Shown one piece after another: positions 638-15,515 of a DNA stretch of 64,000 bases (positions within the stretch are counted from its first letter, which is position 1; each line of letters opens with the position of its first letter). Both the position numbers and the translations under genes were made by a program. The stretch is taken from positions 1-64,000 of the IMG/VR virus record IMGVR_UViG_3300025122_005335. One strand, given 5' to 3'. The stretch is from a virus. Under the pieces are notes generated by a model, which saw only the letters and a list, made by a program, of their open reading frames with translations, had not been told where the DNA came from and made no database searches.

Positions 638-1430
638 TGATTTTTTTAACTAAATCTTCTATACCTTCTTCATTGGTGCGTGAAAAACAAGCAACTACGC
701 CTCTTTTTTGTACAACCTGACTGGCCATATCATTAGCAAAAAATATTGATTCCATTATACAGCCGGTTTCAAGATAGTGAAACACTAAAGCAGCTAAAAA
801 AGAATCTCCAGCACCACATAAGTCAAACACTTCAACTTGGTCTACTAAATAAACTGCACCTTTCCATCTACACCCATCTTTACCAAGTGTAACAATAAGT
901 TTTTCTTCCCAATCTTTTTCGTTTATTTTACCTTTTAAATCATTATATTCAGGTTCATTTATTTTAATTATTTTTGCTTTTTTGCAAAAATCTCCTAATA
1001 CTTTTTTTGTATCAATGAAAACGTTAGGGTTTTTTTCGCAACAAAATTGAATTAGTTCTTCAGTAACAAACCCTTTACAATAATCTGATATAACAATTGC
1101 ATCCCACTCCCCCGGTTCAAAATCATAGTTTATTACTTCAGGACTAGATCCAAAAGGTTCCGCCTTATCCCCTTCATCTACTCTTAAAAATGTATGGTTG
1201 GTTTGTTCATCAACATATCTAATTTTTGTCATTTCAGTTTCATTGAACATACAGTCGGCATCTAAACCTAATGATTTAAAATTCCTAACTACATTCCCAG
1301 CCATACCACTATCAGTAATTGTTTTGGTAGGGGAAAAAACCGGGGCTGGTACGTCCGGACACAACCGGTTTACTTTCCCGTAAATAAAAACATCCGTACA
1401 ATTATCTCCTATTACTAAAACTCGTTTCAT
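630..1430 (-). CDS. PfkB-family sugar kinase, HldE kinase-domain-like
   Basis: 266 aa. The N-terminus (VLVIGDNCTDVFIYG) and the C-terminal signature DLCGAGDSFLAAL near residue 205 are those of PfkB/ribokinase-fold kinases. The Asp in GAGD is the expected catalytic base. The opening resembles the kinase domain of HldE/RfaE, which phosphorylates D-glycero-D-manno-heptose 7-phosphate at C1. The adenylyltransferase half of HldE is absent. The start overlaps the stop of RmlA (TAATG), so both are co-translated. A role in making an activated sugar is inferred; the actual substrate cannot be read from the sequence. Confidence 0.8.
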   Translation of the reverse strand: MKRVLVIGDNCTDVFIYGKVNRLCPDVPAPVFSPTKTITDSGMAGNVVRNFKSLGLDADCMFNETEMTKIRYVDEQTNHTFLRVDEGDKAEPFGSSPEVINYDFEPGEWDAIVISDYCKGFVTEELIQFCCEKNPNVFIDTKKVLGDFCKKAKIIKINEPEYNDLKGKINEKDWEEKLIVTLGKDGCRWKGAVYLVDQVEVFDLCGAGDSFLAALVFHYLETGCIMESIFFANDMASQVVQKRGVVACFSRTNEEGIEDLVKKINA

Positions 1431-2290
1431 TAAAAATAACTTTGTTTAATTTTTCGTTTATATGAACATTCAGGCATATCGTTAACAATTTTTTCAAATT
1501 GTGGTTGTGTTATATTTCCAGCTTTATAACTTTCATACTCAATACACCCAACCATGCAATTTGTTCTATCTTGTATTGATTTAATAAACATAGTAGCAGC
1601 GAACATTTCATCTGGGTCGCCAGTATCGAACCATGCATATTTACTCTCATGTTCATTAAACCACAAAGTGCCATCGTCCATGTAACTGAGATTTAAATCA
1701 GTTATTTCTAATTCGCCTCTGTCAGATTGTTTCAATGCTAGCGCTCTTTCTCCTGCAGTATTGTCATAAAAATAAATACCAGTTACTGCTAAATTAGAAT
1801 TTGTATGTTTGGGTTTTTCTTCTATAGATATAATTTCGCTAATTTTTGTCAGTTTATTTTCTTCAACACACACTACCCCATATAGATGAGGATCTTTGAC
1901 TTTATAACCTGTTATACATGCTCCATACTCTACCGGCCAAGGGGTCTTTTTTATACCTGTAAATAAGTTGTCTCCTAAAATTAAACAAACGTCATTATCG
2001 CCTTGCCATTCTTCTGCTATAATTAACGCTTCTGCTATACCAGCTGGTTTTTTTTGAATTCTAAATGTAAAATTAATACCCAGATATTCTTTACCCAATA
2101 AATCTAAAATATGATTATATGCTACCCCATTTGTTATAATCATAATTTCTTTAATTCCCAATTTTATTAGGGTTGAAAGAGGATAATAAATTGTAGGTTT
2201 GTCGTAAATTGGGAGAAGTTGTTTAGATACAACTTTTGTGCTTGGATAAACTCTTGTCCCTGAACCCCCAGCTAAAATTATACCTTTCAT
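1430..2290 (-). CDS. rmlA: Glucose-1-phosphate thymidylyltransferase RmlA
   Basis: 286 aa, the usual length for RmlA (RfbA). It makes dTDP-glucose from dTTP and glucose 1-phosphate. The N-terminus has the nucleotide-binding loop LAGGSGTR (residues 6-13), followed by SKQLLPIYDKPTIYYPLS, a near-perfect RmlA signature. LILGDNLF near residue 110 carries the metal-binding Asp. The next two steps are encoded far away at 27488-29439, so together the phage can make dTDP-L-rhamnose. The start overlaps the upstream 67-aa ORF (ATGA). Confidence 0.95.
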   Translation of the reverse strand: MKGIILAGGSGTRVYPSTKVVSKQLLPIYDKPTIYYPLSTLIKLGIKEIMIITNGVAYNHILDLLGKEYLGINFTFRIQKKPAGIAEALIIAEEWQGDNDVCLILGDNLFTGIKKTPWPVEYGACITGYKVKDPHLYGVVCVEENKLTKISEIISIEEKPKHTNSNLAVTGIYFYDNTAGERALALKQSDRGELEITDLNLSYMDDGTLWFNEHESKYAWFDTGDPDEMFAATMFIKSIQDRTNCMVGCIEYESYKAGNITQPQFEKIVNDMPECSYKRKIKQSYF

Positions 2291-2490
2291 TTTTCTTCTT
2301 CTGTTTCTTCTTTAGGTTCTTCTTTATCTCGAGCTTTAATTTTTTCTATGAGAAATTCAACCAATTGTAGTCGAGCTGCTTCTGAGGCAAAATTTATTTG
2401 TGGGTTGTTGTCGTTATATTCTTCTAATATCTTTATTAACGTAGAAGTTGTATCAAACCATTGAGCAAGTTCTTTATTGGTTATTGTCAT
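2287..2490 (-). CDS. Hypothetical protein, 67 aa, acidic tail
   Basis: Small helical-looking protein with a Lys/Glu-rich C-terminus. It is the first gene of the run 2490 to 407 and overlaps the RmlA start. A TATCAT box (2497-2502) lies 6 nt before the ATG. No family recognised. Confidence 0.6.
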   Translation of the reverse strand: MTITNKELAQWFDTTSTLIKILEEYNDNNPQINFASEAARLQLVEFLIEKIKARDKEEPKEETEEEK

Positions 2491-2513
2491 AAAACTATGA
2501 TATGGTTAAAGCC

Positions 2514-2596
2514 AAAAAAAACCATGCAGGCCCACCTATATAATAGCTACAAGTACCACCACATACATCGTAGCCCACCAAACAGCCTGCATGGTT
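2514..2596 (-). terminator. Large-loop hairpin with U tract
   Basis: A perfect 12-bp inverted repeat, AACCATGCAGGC (2520-2531) and GCCTGCATGGTT (2585-2596), encloses 53 nt. On the minus strand it is followed directly by eight T. It ends the glycosyltransferase operon read from the right. The loop is unusually long and may fold further (GCTAC/GTAGC). Confidence 0.6.
2536..2592 (-). CDS. Candidate hydrophobic micropeptide, 18 aa
   Basis: An 18-codon ORF on the minus strand reads MQAVWWATMYVVVLVAII and stops with TAG. It is almost wholly hydrophobic and long enough for one membrane helix. Its ATG lies in one arm of a 12-bp inverted repeat, and a GATAAATA late-box-like sequence sits 9 nt upstream, overlapping the stop of the glycosyltransferase gene. 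It may be chance reading of a terminator hairpin; no comparison was possible. Confidence 0.25.
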   Translation of the reverse strand: MQAVWWATMYVVVLVAII

Positions 2597-2600
2597 AAAG

Positions 2601-3296
2601 TTATTTATCACTGGACCAATTTTTACAATATCTTAAACTAGAAATTTTTTTCTTTTTATATGCAAGATCTTCCCATGTGTATCCGTATTTCCCATAATGC
2701 GTTAATTTTATAGTGCTATCTACATAAATTTCATACCCACATTGTTTCGCATATTTGCAAAAAGAAAAATCTTCTCCGAGATAATAATGTCTATCCCCTT
2801 CTTCCCACACGTTAGGTCTGAACCACGGATAGCTAGGGCAGTCAAAACTAGTATTACAAAGAGGTAGTTTTAATTCATCAACCATACGTGTGTATACGTC
2901 TCTTTTCGTGTATAAAAATCCAGTTGCTACACAATGTACTTCATACACACCCCCACCTTCTCCAAAAATAATTTCTTGGTCGTCGTATAAAGGATCAAAA
3001 GTCAATTCCGGGTGGCCTTTAAACGGGTAAACCCCTGCAATAATGTGTTTTTCACTATTTTGTAATTTTTTTATATCTTCTATTTCGAAATCCACATCAC
3101 CGTCTATCCATATTAATTCTTCAAAGTCTCTTTGATATATAGCGTCATAAGCCATTCTAGATCTACATTGATCAATAGCCGAATATCCGGGTGTTCGCCA
3201 CACTTCGTACCCCATTTTTTCTAATTCTCTGAGTTTGCAGTCAACATTAAAAACAATACCCCCATTACATGGTACTAATATTACTGTCTTACTCAT
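2601..3296 (-). CDS. GT-A type glycosyltransferase-like protein
   Basis: 231 aa from the ATG at 3296. That start is chosen because AAGGAAG precedes it by about 10 nt; an in-frame ATG at 3341 would add 15 residues and overlap the upstream gene. The motif LIWIDGDVDF near residue 85 has the DxD form of metal-dependent GT-A enzymes, and the protein begins with a Rossmann-like strand (VILVPCNGGI). It lies in a row of sugar-transfer genes (2601-4885). Donor and acceptor are unknown. Confidence 0.6.
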   Translation of the reverse strand: MSKTVILVPCNGGIVFNVDCKLRELEKMGYEVWRTPGYSAIDQCRSRMAYDAIYQRDFEELIWIDGDVDFEIEDIKKLQNSEKHIIAGVYPFKGHPELTFDPLYDDQEIIFGEGGGVYEVHCVATGFLYTKRDVYTRMVDELKLPLCNTSFDCPSYPWFRPNVWEEGDRHYYLGEDFSFCKYAKQCGYEIYVDSTIKLTHYGKYGYTWEDLAYKKKKISSLRYCKNWSSDK

Positions 3297-3321
3297 TGTC
3301 TTTTTACTTCCTTTTAGTATA

Positions 3322-4008
3322 TTATGTGGGTATAAGTTCATTTACGTAATGTTTATCATATAGGTAAAAAAATTTTTCTATTTGAATCGGGTGTTCGTAA
3401 TTAAGAAATTTGTTTGGGTTTATTTTAATGCCGCTTTTTTGCAAAATGTTTCCTATAGCGACATCTTCTATAGAGAATTTTTCGTACTTTTCTTTTCCTT
3501 TATAAGAAATTATAGTTTGTATTGATTTTTTACTAAAAATTACACACTCTCCTGAACAATACTGGTTTGGTAATTCACCTTGATATGCTTTTCTAATTTT
3601 ATAATTTTTTAAAGTACAAAATTTATTTCTAATTAACTCTTCATCGGTTATCAAAACCTTATTACCCACATAATCCCCGGAAATTTTGTGTTCTAAAAAG
3701 GTATCCACGTTATATAAAAATGTATCGTCATCTATTTTTAGAGCGTGAGTATAATCTTTGTTTATGATTTTTTTAAAAAAACCAAATAATTTTTTGTGTA
3801 CGTTGGAAATGTTGTCGGGTGTCTTAATATATACATCTGTATAAGATATCCCGTCTCTTTTACAGTGTACCATACGTGAAATGTTCCCACCATAGACGAA
3901 ATAAATATCCATGTTATCGGGAATATGTTTCAAATATGTATCTAAAGCTGCTAGTTTAAATCCTATATTATTTTCAAAGGTTAATATTGCTAAAGCGTAT
4001 TTCGTCAT
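3322..4008 (-). CDS. GT31-like (galactosyltransferase-type) glycosyltransferase
   Basis: 228 aa. ALKIDDDTFLYN near residue 90 is a DDD metal-binding motif. CSGECVIFSKKSI and the later IEDVAIGNIL correspond to the G-x-gY and EDV-x-xG blocks of beta-1,3-galactosyltransferases (GT31). The start lies 35 bp inside the upstream gene, so the three transferases 4885 to 2601 are one transcription unit. The call rests on motifs only; the sugar is unknown. Confidence 0.6.
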   Translation of the reverse strand: MTKYALAILTFENNIGFKLAALDTYLKHIPDNMDIYFVYGGNISRMVHCKRDGISYTDVYIKTPDNISNVHKKLFGFFKKIINKDYTHALKIDDDTFLYNVDTFLEHKISGDYVGNKVLITDEELIRNKFCTLKNYKIRKAYQGELPNQYCSGECVIFSKKSIQTIISYKGKEKYEKFSIEDVAIGNILQKSGIKINPNKFLNYEHPIQIEKFFYLYDKHYVNELIPT

Positions 4009-4885
4009 AGTTAATTTTGTTTTTTAAAAGGTCATATATGCTGCCTTTTTCTTTTGTTGGGTTGAAATTTGCAAACGTAAGTTTGGCAAAATTGAAATAG
4101 ACATTTAAAAATGTAAAAAGTTCTATTTCAGTAAAGATTCTATCATATTCGGATAAATAGTACTTTATTGCACCAATATACATTTGTTTTATTGAATGTG
4201 CCTTTCTTACAGTCAACCCTAACAAACCTGCAGATGCAGACCAATAGTCAATTTTTGTATCCCAAAATTTTTCAATGAATAATTCTGGTTCTATTCCAAC
4301 ATAAGGTAAACCTATCATAAAATTATTGGTTTTTTCGAATAATTTAAAAATATTTTTTCCTAAAGTTGGGTTAAAAATATCATTTTCGTTTTTAGGGTAG
4401 TAGTTATCCCAATTTTGTACTTTTATATCATGCCAAGTACCACCACACTCTTCGGGAATATAAGATTCGTTACTTAACCCGGCATCCATCCAGACAACTC
4501 TTTCGTATTTTAAACTAATAGCATCTAAAATATAAAATAGCTTTGCTGTTGTAAGCATAGGACTCCAACAGTAAACACCAGTTGGGTTTTTATCTATTAT
4601 TTTCTTACTATATTCAAATATTTCGTCGTAAAAGGGGTTAATATCTTTTGAAGTTTTATTAATAAATGTTGGTAAAGACTGTACTTTGTCTTTCAAAGCA
4701 TTAGTTATATCTTCTTCTACAGATTTGTTACAATAAATTAAAAGTTCTTTATCTAAATTTAAAAGACTTTTTATACCAGTAAAATAATGTTCCGGTATAA
4801 AATTTCTTGTTAATTTTGTGTCCTGACCTTCTGGTTGATAATTTTCAACCAATTCGACCGCGGTAACAATACAGTCTTTTAACAT
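3974..4885 (-). CDS. HtrL/YibB-like putative glycosyltransferase, copy 1
   Basis: 303 aa. The block ERVVWMDAGLSN near residue 140 is the hallmark of the HtrL_YibB/WlaTC family, whose studied members act in surface glycan synthesis. The conserved Asp would take the place of the DxD motif. A second family member lies at 52907-53914 with the matching block DNFVWVDSGCTHWG. A TACAAT box lies 6 nt before the ATG. It is the first gene of the three-transferase operon. Confidence 0.6.
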   Translation of the reverse strand: MLKDCIVTAVELVENYQPEGQDTKLTRNFIPEHYFTGIKSLLNLDKELLIYCNKSVEEDITNALKDKVQSLPTFINKTSKDINPFYDEIFEYSKKIIDKNPTGVYCWSPMLTTAKLFYILDAISLKYERVVWMDAGLSNESYIPEECGGTWHDIKVQNWDNYYPKNENDIFNPTLGKNIFKLFEKTNNFMIGLPYVGIEPELFIEKFWDTKIDYWSASAGLLGLTVRKAHSIKQMYIGAIKYYLSEYDRIFTEIELFTFLNVYFNFAKLTFANFNPTKEKGSIYDLLKNKINYDEIRFSNINL

Positions 4886-4910: not shown

Positions 4911-4945
4911 AAAAATCAAGGAAAAGGCGGCCCGTAGGCCGCCTT
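4911..4945 (-). terminator. Rho-independent terminator after hsp20
   Basis: Stem AAGGCGGCC/GGCCGCCTT (4924-4932 and 4937-4945) with loop CGTA, followed on the minus strand by a T-rich tail. It separates hsp20 from the glycosyltransferase operon. Confidence 0.85.
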
Positions 4946-4959
4946 GATAAACCTGATTA

Positions 4960-5379
4960 TTAGTCGACTTTAACGTCTATAACTTTATGTTCCTTCTCTT
5001 CTATTCGAGGAGCAGTTATAGCTAAGACACCATCGGAAAGTTTTGAAACGAATTTGTCTACATCAAAATCCGAAGGGTCCAATCGGAATGACCTTGTATA
5101 TGTTTCTTCTTTTGAACCAGTTTTAGAAGTAATGGTACGCTTAGCTTCAACATATGCAACGTTTGTATCCTCATTGTATGTAACCTTAAGGTCTTTTTTC
5201 TTCACACCCGGAAGATCAATCTCTACATGAAAGTTTTCTTTACTTTCATTGAAACGAATATTATCGTTAGAAAAAGATTCAGGTGTAAGAATGCGATCGA
5301 AATCATTAAAAATTTCGAATAATGGGCTGTACCGTCCCGCCCGTGGACTTGCTGTCAATTTAGTTAATAAGTTATTCAT
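4960..5379 (-). CDS. hsp20: Small heat shock protein Hsp20
   Basis: 139 aa with an alpha-crystallin domain at about residues 42-135. Family signatures are HVEIDLPGVKKKDLKVTYNE and, near the C-terminus, KLSDGVLAITAPR (the G-x-L strand). Such ATP-independent chaperones are common in T4-like cyanophages and marine relatives, where a role in virion assembly has been suggested. It has its own promoters and terminator. A late box (ATTAAATA) lies 8 nt before the ATG and a perfect TATAAATA 95 nt upstream, giving a possible long G-rich leader. Confidence 0.92.
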   Translation of the reverse strand: MNNLLTKLTASPRAGRYSPLFEIFNDFDRILTPESFSNDNIRFNESKENFHVEIDLPGVKKKDLKVTYNEDTNVAYVEAKRTITSKTGSKEETYTRSFRLDPSDFDVDKFVSKLSDGVLAITAPRIEEKEHKVIDVKVD

Positions 5380-5387
5380 GACAACAA

Positions 5388-5395
5388 TATTTAAT
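5388..5395 (-). promoter_or_regulatory. Late promoter box, proximal, hsp20
   Basis: ATTAAATA on the minus strand, 8 nt before the hsp20 ATG. Confidence 0.5.
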
Positions 5396-5411
5396 CACAC
5401 ATCCTCGAGAA

Positions 5412-5446
5412 TTCAAGTGTTTTTCCCGCCAACCCACCTCCTTGAA
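5412..5446 (-). promoter_or_regulatory. G-rich leader element upstream of hsp20
   Basis: On the minus strand GGAGGTGGGTTGGCGGG (5441 to 5425) has five G runs, unusual in this AT-rich genome. It lies between the short complementary arms TTCAAG and CTTGAA. It also contains AAGGAGGT, a perfect Shine-Dalgarno sequence with no ATG at normal distance. It could form a two-layer G-quadruplex or a thermosensor-like structure; neither is shown. Confidence 0.4.
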
Positions 5447-5474
5447 CCTATTGATTTATATCTCCTTCAAAATC

Positions 5475-5482
5475 TATTTATA
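5475..5482 (-). promoter_or_regulatory. Late promoter box, distal, hsp20
   Basis: A perfect TATAAATA on the minus strand, overlapping the end of the GNAT gene. It would give hsp20 a leader of about 90 nt containing the G-rich element. Confidence 0.55.
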
Positions 5483-6047
5483 TAAAATCGTATTTTATAA
5501 ATGTCTTATCTTGTTCATCTAGAAGATTTTCCATTTTATACGATTTACAATGCTTAAGAGTAAAACCCATATCTCTAAAAAGCATAGGTTGTAATACATA
5601 AGCGTAGTTATGTTTATTGTAAGTTAAGCGCACTTGACCATGCTTGTTAATAAACCGGAAACCTAATTTTTTATAAAATGGAATAGCGTCTTTATCACAA
5701 TACATTCTTAAAAATCTTGCAGATGAAAAAGAGTGCCTCCAGGTATGTTCTAATAGATCTTTTGCATGACCTTGTTTTCTATAATCTGTACTAGTAAAAA
5801 GTCTTTTAATGTGAAGATTATCTCCTATTACGTTATACGCGCACCCAGCTACAACATCACCTTTACCAAGATCTGATATTTTCATAATTACGTAGGCTCC
5901 TCGTTCATAATCCCACCATTGATTTTTATCCCAATAATCTAAAATATCATTCTGACAGTAGTCTTTTTCCCACCCAGACATTCTTTGTATTAATTCATTA
6001 AAGACAGTTCTTGTAGAACATAAAACATATTGATGATCTTTATCCAT
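5478..6047 (-). CDS. GNAT-family N-acetyltransferase
   Basis: 189 aa from ATG 6047. A TTG at 6083 would extend it by 12 residues, but a TATAAT box lies 7 nt before the ATG, which favours 6047. The acetyl-CoA loop appears as STDYRKQGHAKDLLEH (the R/Q-x-x-G-x-A/G type), followed by FLRMYCDKDAIPFYKKLGFRF, the final GNAT strand-helix block. The substrate is unknown. It sits between a GT4-type glycosyltransferase and hsp20. Confidence 0.75.
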   Translation of the reverse strand: MDKDHQYVLCSTRTVFNELIQRMSGWEKDYCQNDILDYWDKNQWWDYERGAYVIMKISDLGKGDVVAGCAYNVIGDNLHIKRLFTSTDYRKQGHAKDLLEHTWRHSFSSARFLRMYCDKDAIPFYKKLGFRFINKHGQVRLTYNKHNYAYVLQPMLFRDMGFTLKHCKSYKMENLLDEQDKTFIKYDFI

Positions 6048-6054
6048 TCCGGTT

Positions 6055-6060
6055 ATTATA
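6055..6060 (-). promoter_or_regulatory. TATAAT box, 7 nt before the GNAT start
   Basis: Minus-strand TATAAT inside the upstream gene, close to the ATG at 6047. Confidence 0.35.
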
Positions 6061-6072
6061 AGATAAATCCGT

Positions 6073-7029
6073 TTATAGGTCAAGTAAAAAATTTTTAAAT
6101 GCTGCTCTTCTTTTTTTGTTAATGTGTAGGCAGTATTCGCGTTTTTTCATATCTATCTTGTCTTTTTTATGTTCTTGGATTTTTTCTTTTAATTCCTCTT
6201 CGTCAATAATAAATCCTTTTCTTAGAGGCCAAATGCCGCGCGCGGCTTCATGAAAATAATTAAATCTGTCGTCAAAGTCTACTTCTTTTACGTTTATAAA
6301 ATTTACCATATCAGGATCGATTAATTCTTCCCACATAGGGATTTTAGAGCATAGAATACTTTTTCCACAACTTAAAGATTCATACATATAGTGCCCGTGA
6401 CCTTCGTATAAAGAAGGGCATAAATGTAAATTATATGAATTTAGTATTTCATTAAGGTCCTCATCGCTAACATAATAATTAATATAATTGCATTTGGTCA
6501 AATGTGAAAATCTATTTGTACTATCAAGTACTGTAATATTTGGATTATCTATCAACATTTCTGTTCCTTTTTGAATTGAACAACCAGCAAAATGAAGTGT
6601 TTGGTTTTTTATTTTAGCTGGTCTATATCTGTCAATAGACCAAAAGGGTAAGACTATTACATTTTTAAGGTAAGGTGATAATAATTTTTTAGAATATTTC
6701 GATTTAACAATAACATAGTCATAGTAATTTTTACATTCTTTTAGATCTTCTAAATCGTTTTTACTTAACCATTCTTCATTTAGAATTAATATTTTCTTTT
6801 TTATATTGTCTGGTTTACCATGGACATTATTAAAAATACCTAAGTCTATAGATTCAGGTTGTTTAAAATCATATAAAAATCGCCCATTTTCATATTTTTT
6901 TTCATTAGTGTTTTGGCAATCTTGCATAATAACATCATATTGTTCTTTTATACAGTCAAATAGCAATTCACCATCTTTTGCATCCCCTGATCCGTTATGG
7001 TAGTAAAAGATTTTAGCTAATTTCTTCAC
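6073..7029 (-). CDS. GT4-like (GT-B fold) glycosyltransferase
   Basis: 318 aa, GTG start overlapping the ribonucleotide reductase stop (TAGTG). The C-terminal half shows the donor-binding block LHLCPSLYEGHGHYMYESLS, matching the E-x7-E motif of group 1 transferases, followed by CGKSILCSKIPMWEEL. HFAGCSIQKG begins the C-terminal Rossmann domain. It is shorter than typical GT4 enzymes because the N-terminal domain is compact. Donor and acceptor are unknown. Confidence 0.75.
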   Translation of the reverse strand: MKKLAKIFYYHNGSGDAKDGELLFDCIKEQYDVIMQDCQNTNEKKYENGRFLYDFKQPESIDLGIFNNVHGKPDNIKKKILILNEEWLSKNDLEDLKECKNYYDYVIVKSKYSKKLLSPYLKNVIVLPFWSIDRYRPAKIKNQTLHFAGCSIQKGTEMLIDNPNITVLDSTNRFSHLTKCNYINYYVSDEDLNEILNSYNLHLCPSLYEGHGHYMYESLSCGKSILCSKIPMWEELIDPDMVNFINVKEVDFDDRFNYFHEAARGIWPLRKGFIIDEEELKEKIQEHKKDKIDMKKREYCLHINKKRRAAFKNFLLDL

Positions 7030-12941: not shown

Positions 12942-15515
12942 TTAACCAACAATTTCGCTAAAGTCTTGACCGGTTCTGGTTGCATAGAAGTTAACTAATA
13001 TGAACTCAGCTGCTCGAACTGGTTTCAAATAAATGTCAACAACTAACTCATTAGCATCAATAACTTCTGGTGTATTATTACGTTCATCACAAACAATAAG
13101 ATAATCATACAAGCCTTCATTATTTTTTGCATCTTCCATAATAGGATTAAGAACATTAAGAACGTTTGTTCTTGTAAACAACGTATTTGGTTCAAATACG
13201 AAATACTTAACTGTTTCTTTAACTCGTTTTTCGAGATATAAGAACAACCTTCTTACGTTAATTCTATCAAATGCACTTGGTTTAGTTTGTAGTGTCTTTT
13301 GACCATAAATTACAAACCCTTCACTCGGAAAGAATGCAACTGGGTTAGTATTGGTTTGATCATATATAGAATCACGTTGTTTCTGGTTCGGGTAAATTGC
13401 AACATCATTTACTGTGTCTAAAAGACCTCTTGTAAATCCGGCTGGTGCATACCATGGTGCGAAGTTGGCATCCGTTTGTGCATACTTCGCAGCCGCTAAA
13501 CCAGACATTGGTATCCATGTTTGACCAGATACTTGGTTATCAAAAACTTGTGTCCATGTAGCATAAGCTGCTGCATAGTTTGTATTAATAAGAGAATAAC
13601 AATTCTTTAAAGGCTGTAATATGTTTACCGGGAATGTATTTCCTGGTATATTAATAACCTTACTGTTTTCACCTTGAACAAATATCTGTCTAATTGGATC
13701 AGAAACATAAATGAAATCCTTTCTAGTATTTTGAGCAAACGTAATGAATTTGGTTTGAACAGAATTCCAACTAGATCTAATGGCAACTGCAAGCGGAGCA
13801 AGACTTGGTGATGTTGCTGACAACTGATTCATTCCTACTCGACTGGATCCAGGATCACCTAATGCATCTCTATCATCAAAAAACTGTGTACTGAAATTTG
13901 TATTATTTGTTGTATTATCGATCGTAGTTTGAATAGTACCTAACCCGGCTTCTGGGATGATATCAATATCAAATATGTCTTGGTTCGCTAATCTGTCAAA
14001 TACACGATCTAACTTACCTGGTATATTTCCAATAGCTTTTACATTAAGACTCGATGTTGTTGATCTGTCGTTTGTCGAATAAACGGCAGCGGGTAACATT
14101 GTTTGGAACCCCATGCCAAATGTAGTACCATATGTAAAATCTGAAGAATTTATAATATAGTTACCAGAACTAATATCTGCAACGTCTACTTGATTAAAAC
14201 CAACAATTTCTCTGTAAGCTCGAATATTACCATAATCACCTTCAGCATTATTAGTATATGTGCGGTTAATTAAACCATCATTCATTATTCTTACCTTTCT
14301 GAATGGCTCACCTGTATCGGAAAGTGTTGCACCATCATATTTTCCGGAGACGTATGGGTTAATTTTCATTGCAGTATTAACACTCTTGTTTGAGAGCTTT
14401 TGCGGTAAGTAATAACTTACAGGCTGACCTCCATTTTCGTTATTAATTTGTCTAAAGTAATCAATACTTCCAAAGTAACCTTCTTCTAATACAAAGTCTA
14501 ATTTAGTAACTTCAGGTGAAAAGACTGATGTTCTAAATTTATACAACCCATGTACAAGTGTGTCGTCAAATGCAGATGTTGCTACGTTGAATGACGTAAT
14601 TTTTTCAGTAACTTCTGAAATATTATATTCAACTGTTTCTGGCAAAATAGCAGCACTAAGTGCAAAATTTAATCTGTTGGTTGGAACCCTTGTTAGGGTA
14701 TCATATTGTACCGTTGTTAATGTTTCGTTTTTGCTTACATTAACACCACCAAAATCATCATAATTTGTAGTTGGGTATATGTTGGTGTTATCTATTAAAC
14801 CAGAATAATAACCTTCTAATTTACTATTGACTGTTGTTTTGGCGGTATTAAGCAAGATAACAGCAGCACCACCTAGATTGGTTAAATCGGTTGTTAAATT
14901 ACCTGTACTGGTTTGAGGTACACTAAACGAACCTTGCTCACCTATAGGTGAGTCTATCCATGCTATAGCAGAATCATCTAAAATAGCTTGATACTGAGCT
15001 TGAGTTAAAGTCAAGAATGTTGGTTTACCTAAAAAGTAATAAACTGTATTACCAGAAGACGCTGGTGAAAATTGTGAAACTGTTTGACCACCTGCAATGT
15101 CAATGTTGGCAGATAAAGTGTTCCACTCGCTTATGGCTGCACTACTTTCGTTGGCGAGCGCGTTTTCATATGCATCTTTGTTAATTGGTCTACCTGGGTA
15201 TACTGTGGCGAAATATTTGTTGGTGAACCCGTCACCTAAATTTACACCATATGGTAATCTGTTTACCATAATATTAGCTCTACTATTAAATGATTGAGCT
15301 ATTGTGTGGTAAAAATACCGCTCTGCGGAATTTGTAGGTTGCCCGTAAATTGATTCGAATTCTGATAAGCTCGACACCTGTATGATTTCATCACTAGGTC
15401 CTTGAGGAGAGAACCCCGCAACAAAAATTGTTGTCCCGATTTTATCAGCGCTCCTTAGAGATAAATCGACTTCATTAATTTCTACACCCGGACTTTGAAT
15501 AGTTCTTTGCGACAT
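12942..15515 (-). CDS. gp18: Tail sheath protein gp18
   Basis: 857 aa, longer than the 659 aa of T4 gp18, so it carries extra surface domains in the middle. The N-terminus RTIQSPGVEINEVDLS and the block FVAGFSPQGPSDEIIQVSS are typical of phage sheath proteins. The C-terminal domain (INVRRLFLYLEKRVKETVKY through FYATRTGQDFSEIVG) is the conserved contractile core. It has its own late box (5 nt upstream) and terminator, consistent with high expression. Confidence 0.95.
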   Translation of the reverse strand: MSQRTIQSPGVEINEVDLSLRSADKIGTTIFVAGFSPQGPSDEIIQVSSLSEFESIYGQPTNSAERYFYHTIAQSFNSRANIMVNRLPYGVNLGDGFTNKYFATVYPGRPINKDAYENALANESSAAISEWNTLSANIDIAGGQTVSQFSPASSGNTVYYFLGKPTFLTLTQAQYQAILDDSAIAWIDSPIGEQGSFSVPQTSTGNLTTDLTNLGGAAVILLNTAKTTVNSKLEGYYSGLIDNTNIYPTTNYDDFGGVNVSKNETLTTVQYDTLTRVPTNRLNFALSAAILPETVEYNISEVTEKITSFNVATSAFDDTLVHGLYKFRTSVFSPEVTKLDFVLEEGYFGSIDYFRQINNENGGQPVSYYLPQKLSNKSVNTAMKINPYVSGKYDGATLSDTGEPFRKVRIMNDGLINRTYTNNAEGDYGNIRAYREIVGFNQVDVADISSGNYIINSSDFTYGTTFGMGFQTMLPAAVYSTNDRSTTSSLNVKAIGNIPGKLDRVFDRLANQDIFDIDIIPEAGLGTIQTTIDNTTNNTNFSTQFFDDRDALGDPGSSRVGMNQLSATSPSLAPLAVAIRSSWNSVQTKFITFAQNTRKDFIYVSDPIRQIFVQGENSKVINIPGNTFPVNILQPLKNCYSLINTNYAAAYATWTQVFDNQVSGQTWIPMSGLAAAKYAQTDANFAPWYAPAGFTRGLLDTVNDVAIYPNQKQRDSIYDQTNTNPVAFFPSEGFVIYGQKTLQTKPSAFDRINVRRLFLYLEKRVKETVKYFVFEPNTLFTRTNVLNVLNPIMEDAKNNEGLYDYLIVCDERNNTPEVIDANELVVDIYLKPVRAAEFILVNFYATRTGQDFSEIVG

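What the first reader, a model, noticed from the sequence alone, without database searches (positions are those of the whole stretch)
5380..5482. hsp20 leader with a G-quadruplex-like, Shine-Dalgarno-bearing element
In a genome with very little GC, the minus strand has GGAGGTGGGTTGGCGGG between complementary arms TTCAAG/CTTGAA. It includes a perfect AAGGAGGT far (about 60 nt) from the ATG. A perfect distal late box would transcribe it; the proximal box would skip it. A TTG after the SD also opens a 13-codon leader ORF ending near the proximal box. Heat-shock genes are often controlled by RNA thermometers, so a temperature-sensitive structure is possible.
Basis: partly seen in the sequence, partly recalled or inferred. 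Interest (0 to 1): 0.62.

Follow-up and report, generated by a model that had tools for sequence, protein, structure and literature searches.

The report
Conserved G-rich hairpin before phage hsp20
In front of the small heat-shock gene of an uncultured T4-like phage lies a short RNA leader, built as a hairpin tipped with a run of guanines able to form a G-quadruplex, and it is kept in related phages far better than silent sites of the gene, so it is probably a real control element, although not the Shine-Dalgarno site or heat sensor first suggested.

Summary
In detail: the minus strand carries GGAGGTGGGTTGGCGGG between TTCAAG/CTTGAA, downstream of a perfect T4-type late box, upstream of hsp20. 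Five distinct versions of this leader precede hsp20 in IMG/VR phages. A sixth, in another T4-like phage, precedes a fatty-acid desaturase gene. The guanines are invariant (GGnGGnGGGTTGGnGGGAA) and only single-base linkers vary. Flanking arms change but stay complementary in most versions. With quadruplexes allowed, all six fold into a hairpin capped by a two-layer quadruplex, starting where the late transcript should begin. Between the window and L006 the leader is 77% identical while hsp20 four-fold sites are 46%.

AAGGAGGT is not conserved (AAGGCGGT/C), and this phage does not use Shine-Dalgarno sites (3% of genes, background 4%); many of its mRNAs look leaderless. No thermometer signature appears. 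Best explanation: a late-expressed structured 5' leader acting in cis on the hsp20 mRNA (translation and/or 5'-end protection). Artificial hairpin+G4 leaders boost bacterial translation. The main rival is a DNA-level exchange cassette, since recombination junctions fall at the leader. A second, clearer structured RNA (80-nt late sRNA, window 2514-2595) was found nearby.

The parts
5475..5482 (-). Distal T4-type late promoter box TATAAATA, overlapping the stop codon of the upstream acetyltransferase gene
   Evidence: a late-type box is kept in all six versions, 5-9 nt before GAAGGMG. By the T4 rule of a start about one helical turn from the box (PMC2988020) plus general knowledge, +1 falls near 5469
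5462..5468 (-). GAAGGAG, the predicted 5' end of the late transcript; GAAGG(A/C)G in all versions
5452..5456 (-). Outer stem, 5' arm AATCA
   Evidence: Pairs with 5393-5397; relatives have ATAAACC/GGTTTAT, including a U-A to C-G compensatory change
5441..5448 (-). Inner stem, 5' arm GGTTCAAG
5425..5441 (-). Guanine core GGAGGTGGGTTGGCGGG, candidate two-layer RNA G-quadruplex
   Evidence: 12 G and TT invariant, the three single-base linkers vary
5410..5417 (-). Inner stem, 3' arm CTTGAATT (CTTGAACT in L048, turning a G-U pair into G-C)
5393..5397 (-). Outer stem, 3' arm TGATT
5388..5395 (-). Degenerate proximal late box ATTAAATA, 8 nt before the ATG, the same spacing as the intact box of hsp20 genes that lack the element
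   Evidence: CATAAATA/TATAAATA + 8 nt + ATG in other clades
4960..5379 (-). hsp20 (Hsp20/alpha-crystallin family, 139 aa)
   Evidence: Pfam HSP20, E 7.7e-15
5391..5432 (-).
4922..4945 (-). Hairpin plus T-run after hsp20 (AAGGCGGCCTACGGGCCGCCTTTT), likely terminator of the hsp20 transcript
   Evidence: Read; not flagged by the consensus scan

Best explanation
The element is a structured 5' leader of the late hsp20 mRNA. RNA polymerase starting at the distal late box makes an mRNA whose first ~75 nt fold into an imperfect hairpin, with a two-layer G-quadruplex at its tip and its base at or near the 5' end. An AU-rich stretch of 13-26 nt and an AUG without a Shine-Dalgarno follow. The leader acts in cis as a bulky, nuclease-resistant 5' cap that helps this otherwise leaderless-type phage gene to be translated and/or keeps the transcript stable late in infection. 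Shown here: position, conservation of the guanines, complementary arms with some compensatory changes, a second gene context, no Shine-Dalgarno usage. Inferred: transcription from the distal box, quadruplex formation, and the direction of the effect.
For: Five distinct hsp20 leaders plus one desaturase leader share late box, GAAGGMG, arm, GGnGGnGGGTTGGnGGGAA, arm. Folding with quadruplexes allowed gives the same architecture in all six; z against dinucleotide shuffles is -1.8, -0.9, -3.1, -3.5, -3.1, -2.9. The leader is 77% identical between WIN and L006 with 14/17 core identity, all differences in linkers, while hsp20 four-fold sites are 46% identical. A covariance model built from the hsp20 leaders alone ranks the desaturase leader first in its record (E 0.006-0.009). 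Inner-stem pairs differ on both sides between hsp20 leaders (UUCAAG/CUUGAA) and L102 (UUAAUCAG/CUGAUUGA). Precedent: an artificial 5' UTR hairpin plus RNA G-quadruplex raises translation up to 12-fold in a T7 in vitro system, with the same pattern in E. coli (PMC11087576).
Against: No transcript or probing data. With the G-core fixed and flanks shuffled, the folds are only weakly better than chance one by one (p about 0.04-0.08 for four versions, 0.37 and 0.5 for WIN and L041). The L102 copy was found with a pattern that contains the core, so its core match is not independent. The model also gives similar scores (E 0.004-0.05) to a different RNA, the sRNA homologous to window 2514-2595. A near-consensus proximal box could make a leaderless hsp20 mRNA that skips the element. 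In PMC11087576 the effect was not through mRNA stability, and the construct had a Shine-Dalgarno.
Confidence: 0.42

Rival explanations
1. DNA-level exchange cassette: the promoter plus G-rich hairpin is a portable conserved patch at which phage genomes recombine, like the PeSL cassettes of T4-type phages or the transcription-linked G-quadruplex of gonococcal pilE. Conservation then reflects shared homology used for gene shuffling more than an RNA function.
For: Contig 3300030106_007723 is L004-like upstream of and through the leader (87%) but L006-like (96.6%) from near hsp20 codon 11 on. WIN and L004 are 94% identical in Hsp20 but 77% in the leader; WIN and L036 are 91% in the leader (measured on L041, which carries the L036 leader) but 62% in Hsp20. 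The element sits before an unrelated gene in L102. In pilE, transcription through the G-rich strand is needed for recombination (PMC3547852).
Against: In all five hsp20 phages the neighbours on both sides are the same (acetyltransferase, hsp20), so little shuffling is visible. An exchange site does not predict guanine conservation with free linkers, nor compensatory arms. The 3300030106 junction could be an assembly chimera.
Confidence: 0.18
2. Operator: the hairpin with its G-rich tip is the binding site of a phage or host RNA-binding protein that represses or activates hsp20 late in infection, as gp32 and gp43 do on their own leaders in T4.
For: T4 precedents for leader operators upstream of the start codon (PMC3014915). 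Invariant core letters, TT included, suit a recognised motif as well as a quadruplex.
Against: The same element before a desaturase gene fits an autoregulatory Hsp20 operator poorly. No candidate protein is identified. Variation confined to linkers is what a quadruplex predicts.
Confidence: 0.17
3. RNA thermometer of a heat-shock gene: the fold hides the start region in the cold and opens when warm.
For: Gene class; in WIN, L004 and L006 a 9-pair hairpin UUGUUGUCA/UGACAGCAA (UGACAACAA in L006) spans the AUG.
Against: No Shine-Dalgarno to mask. Predicted opening of -12..+6 rises only slightly from 5 to 37 C (0.33-0.46 at most in WIN, 0.49-0.51 in L004). The AUG hairpin is broken in L041 and absent in L102.
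Confidence: 0.05
4. Shine-Dalgarno site or leader peptide: AAGGAGGT drives a 13-codon TTG leader ORF, or serves hsp20 through a split site as in T4 genes 25 and 38.
For: Perfect AAGGAGGT in the window; the TTG frame is open in all versions; T4 genes 25 and 38 bring a distant Shine-Dalgarno close by a hairpin (PMC3014915).
Against: AAGGAGGT is AAGGCGGT/C in relatives and GAAGGAG is GAAGGCG in two of six. The phage shows no Shine-Dalgarno usage. The frame shifts in L006. After the outer stem the distance to AUG varies from 13 to 26 nt.
Confidence: 0.05
5. Short non-coding RNA in its own right: the distal late box makes a separate small RNA that ends before hsp20, while hsp20 is made leaderless from the proximal box.
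For: A clear late-box-driven sRNA with terminator lies 2.8 kb away in the same phages. The proximal box is conserved at the spacing seen in other hsp20 clades.
Against: No terminator after the element. In L102 the proximal region has no late box.
Confidence: 0.1

Closest known systems
Artificial hairpin + RNA G-quadruplex 5' UTRs that enhance translation (PMC11087576)
   Same: G-quadruplex with a helix on its 5' side in a bacterial-type 5' UTR, tens of nucleotides from the start codon
   Different: Natural, two-layer, enclosed inside the hairpin rather than following it, and in a phage without Shine-Dalgarno sites; no activity measured
Split ribosome binding sites of T4 genes 25 and 38 (PMC3014915)
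   Same: T4-type phage leader with a helix between a GGAG-type sequence and the AUG
   Different: The GGAG is not conserved, the genome does not use it, and the distance left after folding is variable
T4 gene 32 and gene 43 leader operators (PMC3014915)
   Same: Structured element tens of nt upstream of the start codon of a T4-type phage mRNA, with an AU-rich stretch after it
   Different: No pseudoknot and no UAAC loop seen; occurs before two unrelated genes
PeSL promoter/stem-loop cassettes of T4-like phages (cited in PMC4503421)
   Same: Promoter plus stem-loop unit between genes, found before different genes
   Different: Late promoter before the stem-loop rather than a terminator combined with an early promoter; G-rich tip; no terminator
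pilE G-quadruplex of Neisseria gonorrhoeae (PMC3547852)
   Same: G-rich non-template strand at a promoter; recombination junctions nearby
   Different: Two layers rather than three, inside a conserved hairpin, between two conserved genes

Membership tests
Intramolecular RNA G-quadruplex | Four or more runs of at least two guanines with short linkers | tested here: met
   GG-n-GG-n-GGG-TT-GG-n-GGG in all six versions
Intramolecular RNA G-quadruplex | Selection keeps guanines, not linkers | tested here: met
   All three variable core columns among the hsp20 leaders are the single-base linkers; only five distinct sequences
Intramolecular RNA G-quadruplex | K+-dependent fold seen experimentally | not testable with these tools
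   Prediction only
Conserved structured RNA | Compensatory changes in helices | tested here: inconclusive
   Outer stem U-A to C-G; inner stem G-U to G-C; several inner pairs differ on both sides in L102; few sequences, and stems taken singly are near chance
Known Rfam RNA family | Match above gathering score | tested here: not met
   None at the leader; only two tRNAs in the window
Shine-Dalgarno ribosome binding site | Conserved purine motif used by the genome's genes | tested here: not met
   2/71 genes against 4% background; motif not conserved
RNA thermometer (ROSE, fourU type) | Start region or SD masked at low and opened at high temperature | tested here: not met
   Prediction only: small change from 5 to 37 C, not shared by homologues
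T4-type late promoter | TATAAATA-like box a helical turn upstream of the start | tested here: met
   Box present in all six versions; start site itself not mapped
PeSL cassette | Terminator stem-loop plus early promoter | tested here: not met
   No terminator in the leader and no sigma-70-like promoter upstream of the element
T4 gene 25/38 split ribosome binding site | Helix brings SD to a fixed short distance from AUG | tested here: not met
   Distance after the outer stem 13-26 nt; SD not conserved

The most novel reading that the evidence does not exclude
A natural, portable RNA G-quadruplex-capped hairpin that T4-like phages place at the 5' end of selected late mRNAs (hsp20, a fatty-acid desaturase) to get leadered mRNAs translated or protected in a gene-expression system that otherwise runs largely on leaderless mRNAs without Shine-Dalgarno sites.
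Probability: 0.27. Interest if true: 0.75.

Novelty: new variant of a known kind. Interest (0 to 1): 0.5.

Why it matters
I found no report of a conserved RNA G-quadruplex leader in a phage mRNA in the papers searched. If real, it is a natural counterpart of the synthetic hairpin+quadruplex translation enhancers, in an AT-rich genome where guanine runs are rare, and it appears in two gene contexts. The phage also seems to work largely with leaderless mRNAs, a setting in which what a structured leader does is an open and testable question.

Tried and rejected
Blastn of the leader and of the sRNA against named phages: no real relatives. Pattern scans for the core: exact matches outside the six versions are GC-rich coding or unrelated sequence (L042, L037, L045, L047, L097-L101, L103-L106). 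A wider scan with late box + GAAGG + looser core added only chance hits, and so did the scan of bacterial genomes. A near-match at 64143 of the full record is antisense coding sequence. Rfam: none at the leader. Relatives of the L102 desaturase for a second conservation series: only itself. Joint MAFFT alignments put L102 and the outer arms out of structural register, so covariation was read by hand and by folding. The R1 hits 2 kb downstream of hsp20 turned out to be a different RNA.

Full report
What is there. The window is part of an 80,050-base IMG/VR virus record of an uncultured T4-like phage: its tail sheath resembles that of Pelagibacter phage HTVC008M and Vibrio T4-like phages at 35-41%, GC 30-37%. 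hsp20 (4960-5379, minus; Pfam HSP20) follows an acetyltransferase gene (5478-6083). The core is the only one of its kind in the window; chance gives 0.5 with three mismatches allowed.

Conservation. A search for relatives of the Hsp20 protein, which does not depend on the leader, returned 34 loci; a wider one 42. Most have no leader: a late box (CATAAATA or TATAAATA) sits 8 nt before the ATG. In the window's own branch the leader is present in five distinct forms (WIN, L041/L036, L004, L048, L006). Four-fold degenerate sites of hsp20 are 46% identical between WIN and L006, near saturation, yet the leader is 77% identical and the 17-base core differs only at its three single-base linkers. The linkers read A/C, T/C, C/T; all twelve guanines and the TT are fixed, which is not the pattern of a translated sequence, where silent third positions would be expected to vary first.

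A second context. The core pattern also hit L102, a 19-kb T4-like contig, in front of a fatty-acid desaturase gene (Pfam FA_desaturase, E 2.7e-36). The surroundings match too: GATAAATA, 6 nt, GAAGGAG, complementary arms, core, arms, and GTCATG. A second scan that asked for a late box and GAAGG upstream of a looser core recovered only these phages plus chance hits. A covariance model made from the hsp20 leaders alone ranks the L102 leader first in its record (E 0.006-0.009), but the same model gives similar scores to a different RNA in these phages, so this is support, not proof.

Structure. Plain folding of WIN and L041/L036 is no better than shuffled sequence. With G-quadruplexes allowed, all six leaders fold alike: nested arms with a two-layer quadruplex GG-n-GG-GUU-GG-n-GG at the tip; z against dinucleotide shuffles -1.8, -0.9, -3.1, -3.5, -3.1 and -2.9. 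Arms change in a paired way: outer stem AAUCA/UGAUU in WIN and L041 against ATAAACC/GGTTTAT in L004, L048 and L006; G-U to G-C in the inner stem of L048; a wholly different 11-12 pair stem in L102. Taken one at a time and with the core held fixed, the folds are only weakly better than shuffled flanks, so the hairpin rests on comparison of few sequences and is less secure than the guanine core.

No Shine-Dalgarno and leaderless mRNAs. Of 71 ORFs of at least 90 aa in the window, 2 have a Shine-Dalgarno-like motif at -18 to -5, 3% against 4% background. Instead 13 have a sigma-70-like promoter whose -10 box ends 5-8 nt before the ATG (1.5 expected) and 8 have a late box there (0.3 expected). With T4 starts a helical turn from the box (PMC2988020), such mRNAs would begin at or just before the AUG. 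AAGGAGGT in this phage is therefore not evidence of a ribosome binding site, and it is not conserved. The hsp20 proximal box ATTAAATA has the same 8-nt spacing as the intact box of the other clades, so it looks like the ancestral promoter, now off consensus in every leader-bearing form, while the distal box is intact or nearly so in all of them.

How it most likely works. By the promoter rule the distal transcript begins at or next to GAAGG, so the hairpin base lies near the 5' end of the mRNA, and 13-26 AU-rich nucleotides separate the outer stem from the AUG. I favour a cis-acting leader that raises hsp20 expression late in infection, by acting as a bulky block that biases ribosomes toward the AUG and/or by shielding the 5' end. 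The direct precedent is artificial: hairpin plus RNA quadruplex in a 5' UTR gives up to 12-fold more translation in vitro, with the same pattern in E. coli; there the effect was not through mRNA lifetime (PMC11087576). Inferred and unshown: use of the distal promoter, quadruplex formation, sign of the effect.

Rivals. Exchange cassette: contig 3300030106_007723 switches from L004-like to L006-like sequence at the leader/hsp20 start, and identity levels on the two sides differ in other pairs, so recombination has probably happened here; but that does not explain guanine conservation with free linkers. Protein operator: possible, no candidate. Thermometer: predicted opening of the start region barely changes from 5 to 37 C. 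Leader peptide and split Shine-Dalgarno: rejected above. Separate sRNA: no terminator.

Verdict.

Noticed in passing
window 2514-2595 (-), late box 2602-2609; L004:2303-2380, L006:5079-5158, L012:2053-2132: About 80-nt structured small RNA: late box, 6 nt, then ACCATGCAGGCTGTTTGGTGGGCTACGATGTATGTGGTGGTACTTGTAGC... closed by a 12-pair stem followed by T8 (intrinsic terminator). MFE -35.2 kcal/mol, z -4.9; 94% mean column identity, one compensatory pair; no Rfam match. Found only in the leader-bearing hsp20 phages. A stronger candidate RNA than the leader itself.
   Followed up: partly
whole window: The phage appears to lack Shine-Dalgarno usage and to make leaderless early and late mRNAs: 13 sigma-70-like and 8 late boxes end 5-8 nt before an ATG (1.5 and 0.3 expected), SD-like motifs at background.
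   Followed up: partly
L048/L012 (IMGVR_UViG_3300030106_007723), around the hsp20 start: Abrupt change of nearest relative at the leader/hsp20 border (87% L004-like upstream, 96.6% L006-like downstream): recombination junction or assembly chimera.
   Followed up: no
window 5388-5348 (-): In WIN, L004 and L006 the hsp20 start codon lies in a predicted 9-pair hairpin UUGUUGUCA/UGACAGCAA (UGACAACAA in L006) with the coding region; broken in L041.
   Followed up: no
L102:2490-2529: The desaturase gene below the element has TTGAAC-N16-TATCAT 6 nt before its ATG, a likely early promoter for a leaderless mRNA inside the leader's 3' part (read).
   Followed up: no
window 12942-15515 (-): Tail sheath protein of 857 aa; only residues about 550-857 match known T4-type sheaths, so roughly 550 N-terminal residues are unusual or highly diverged.
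   Followed up: no
window 1430-4885 (-): Cluster of sugar-nucleotide and glycosyltransferase-like genes next to hsp20 (named by recall from the translations, not by family search).
   Followed up: no
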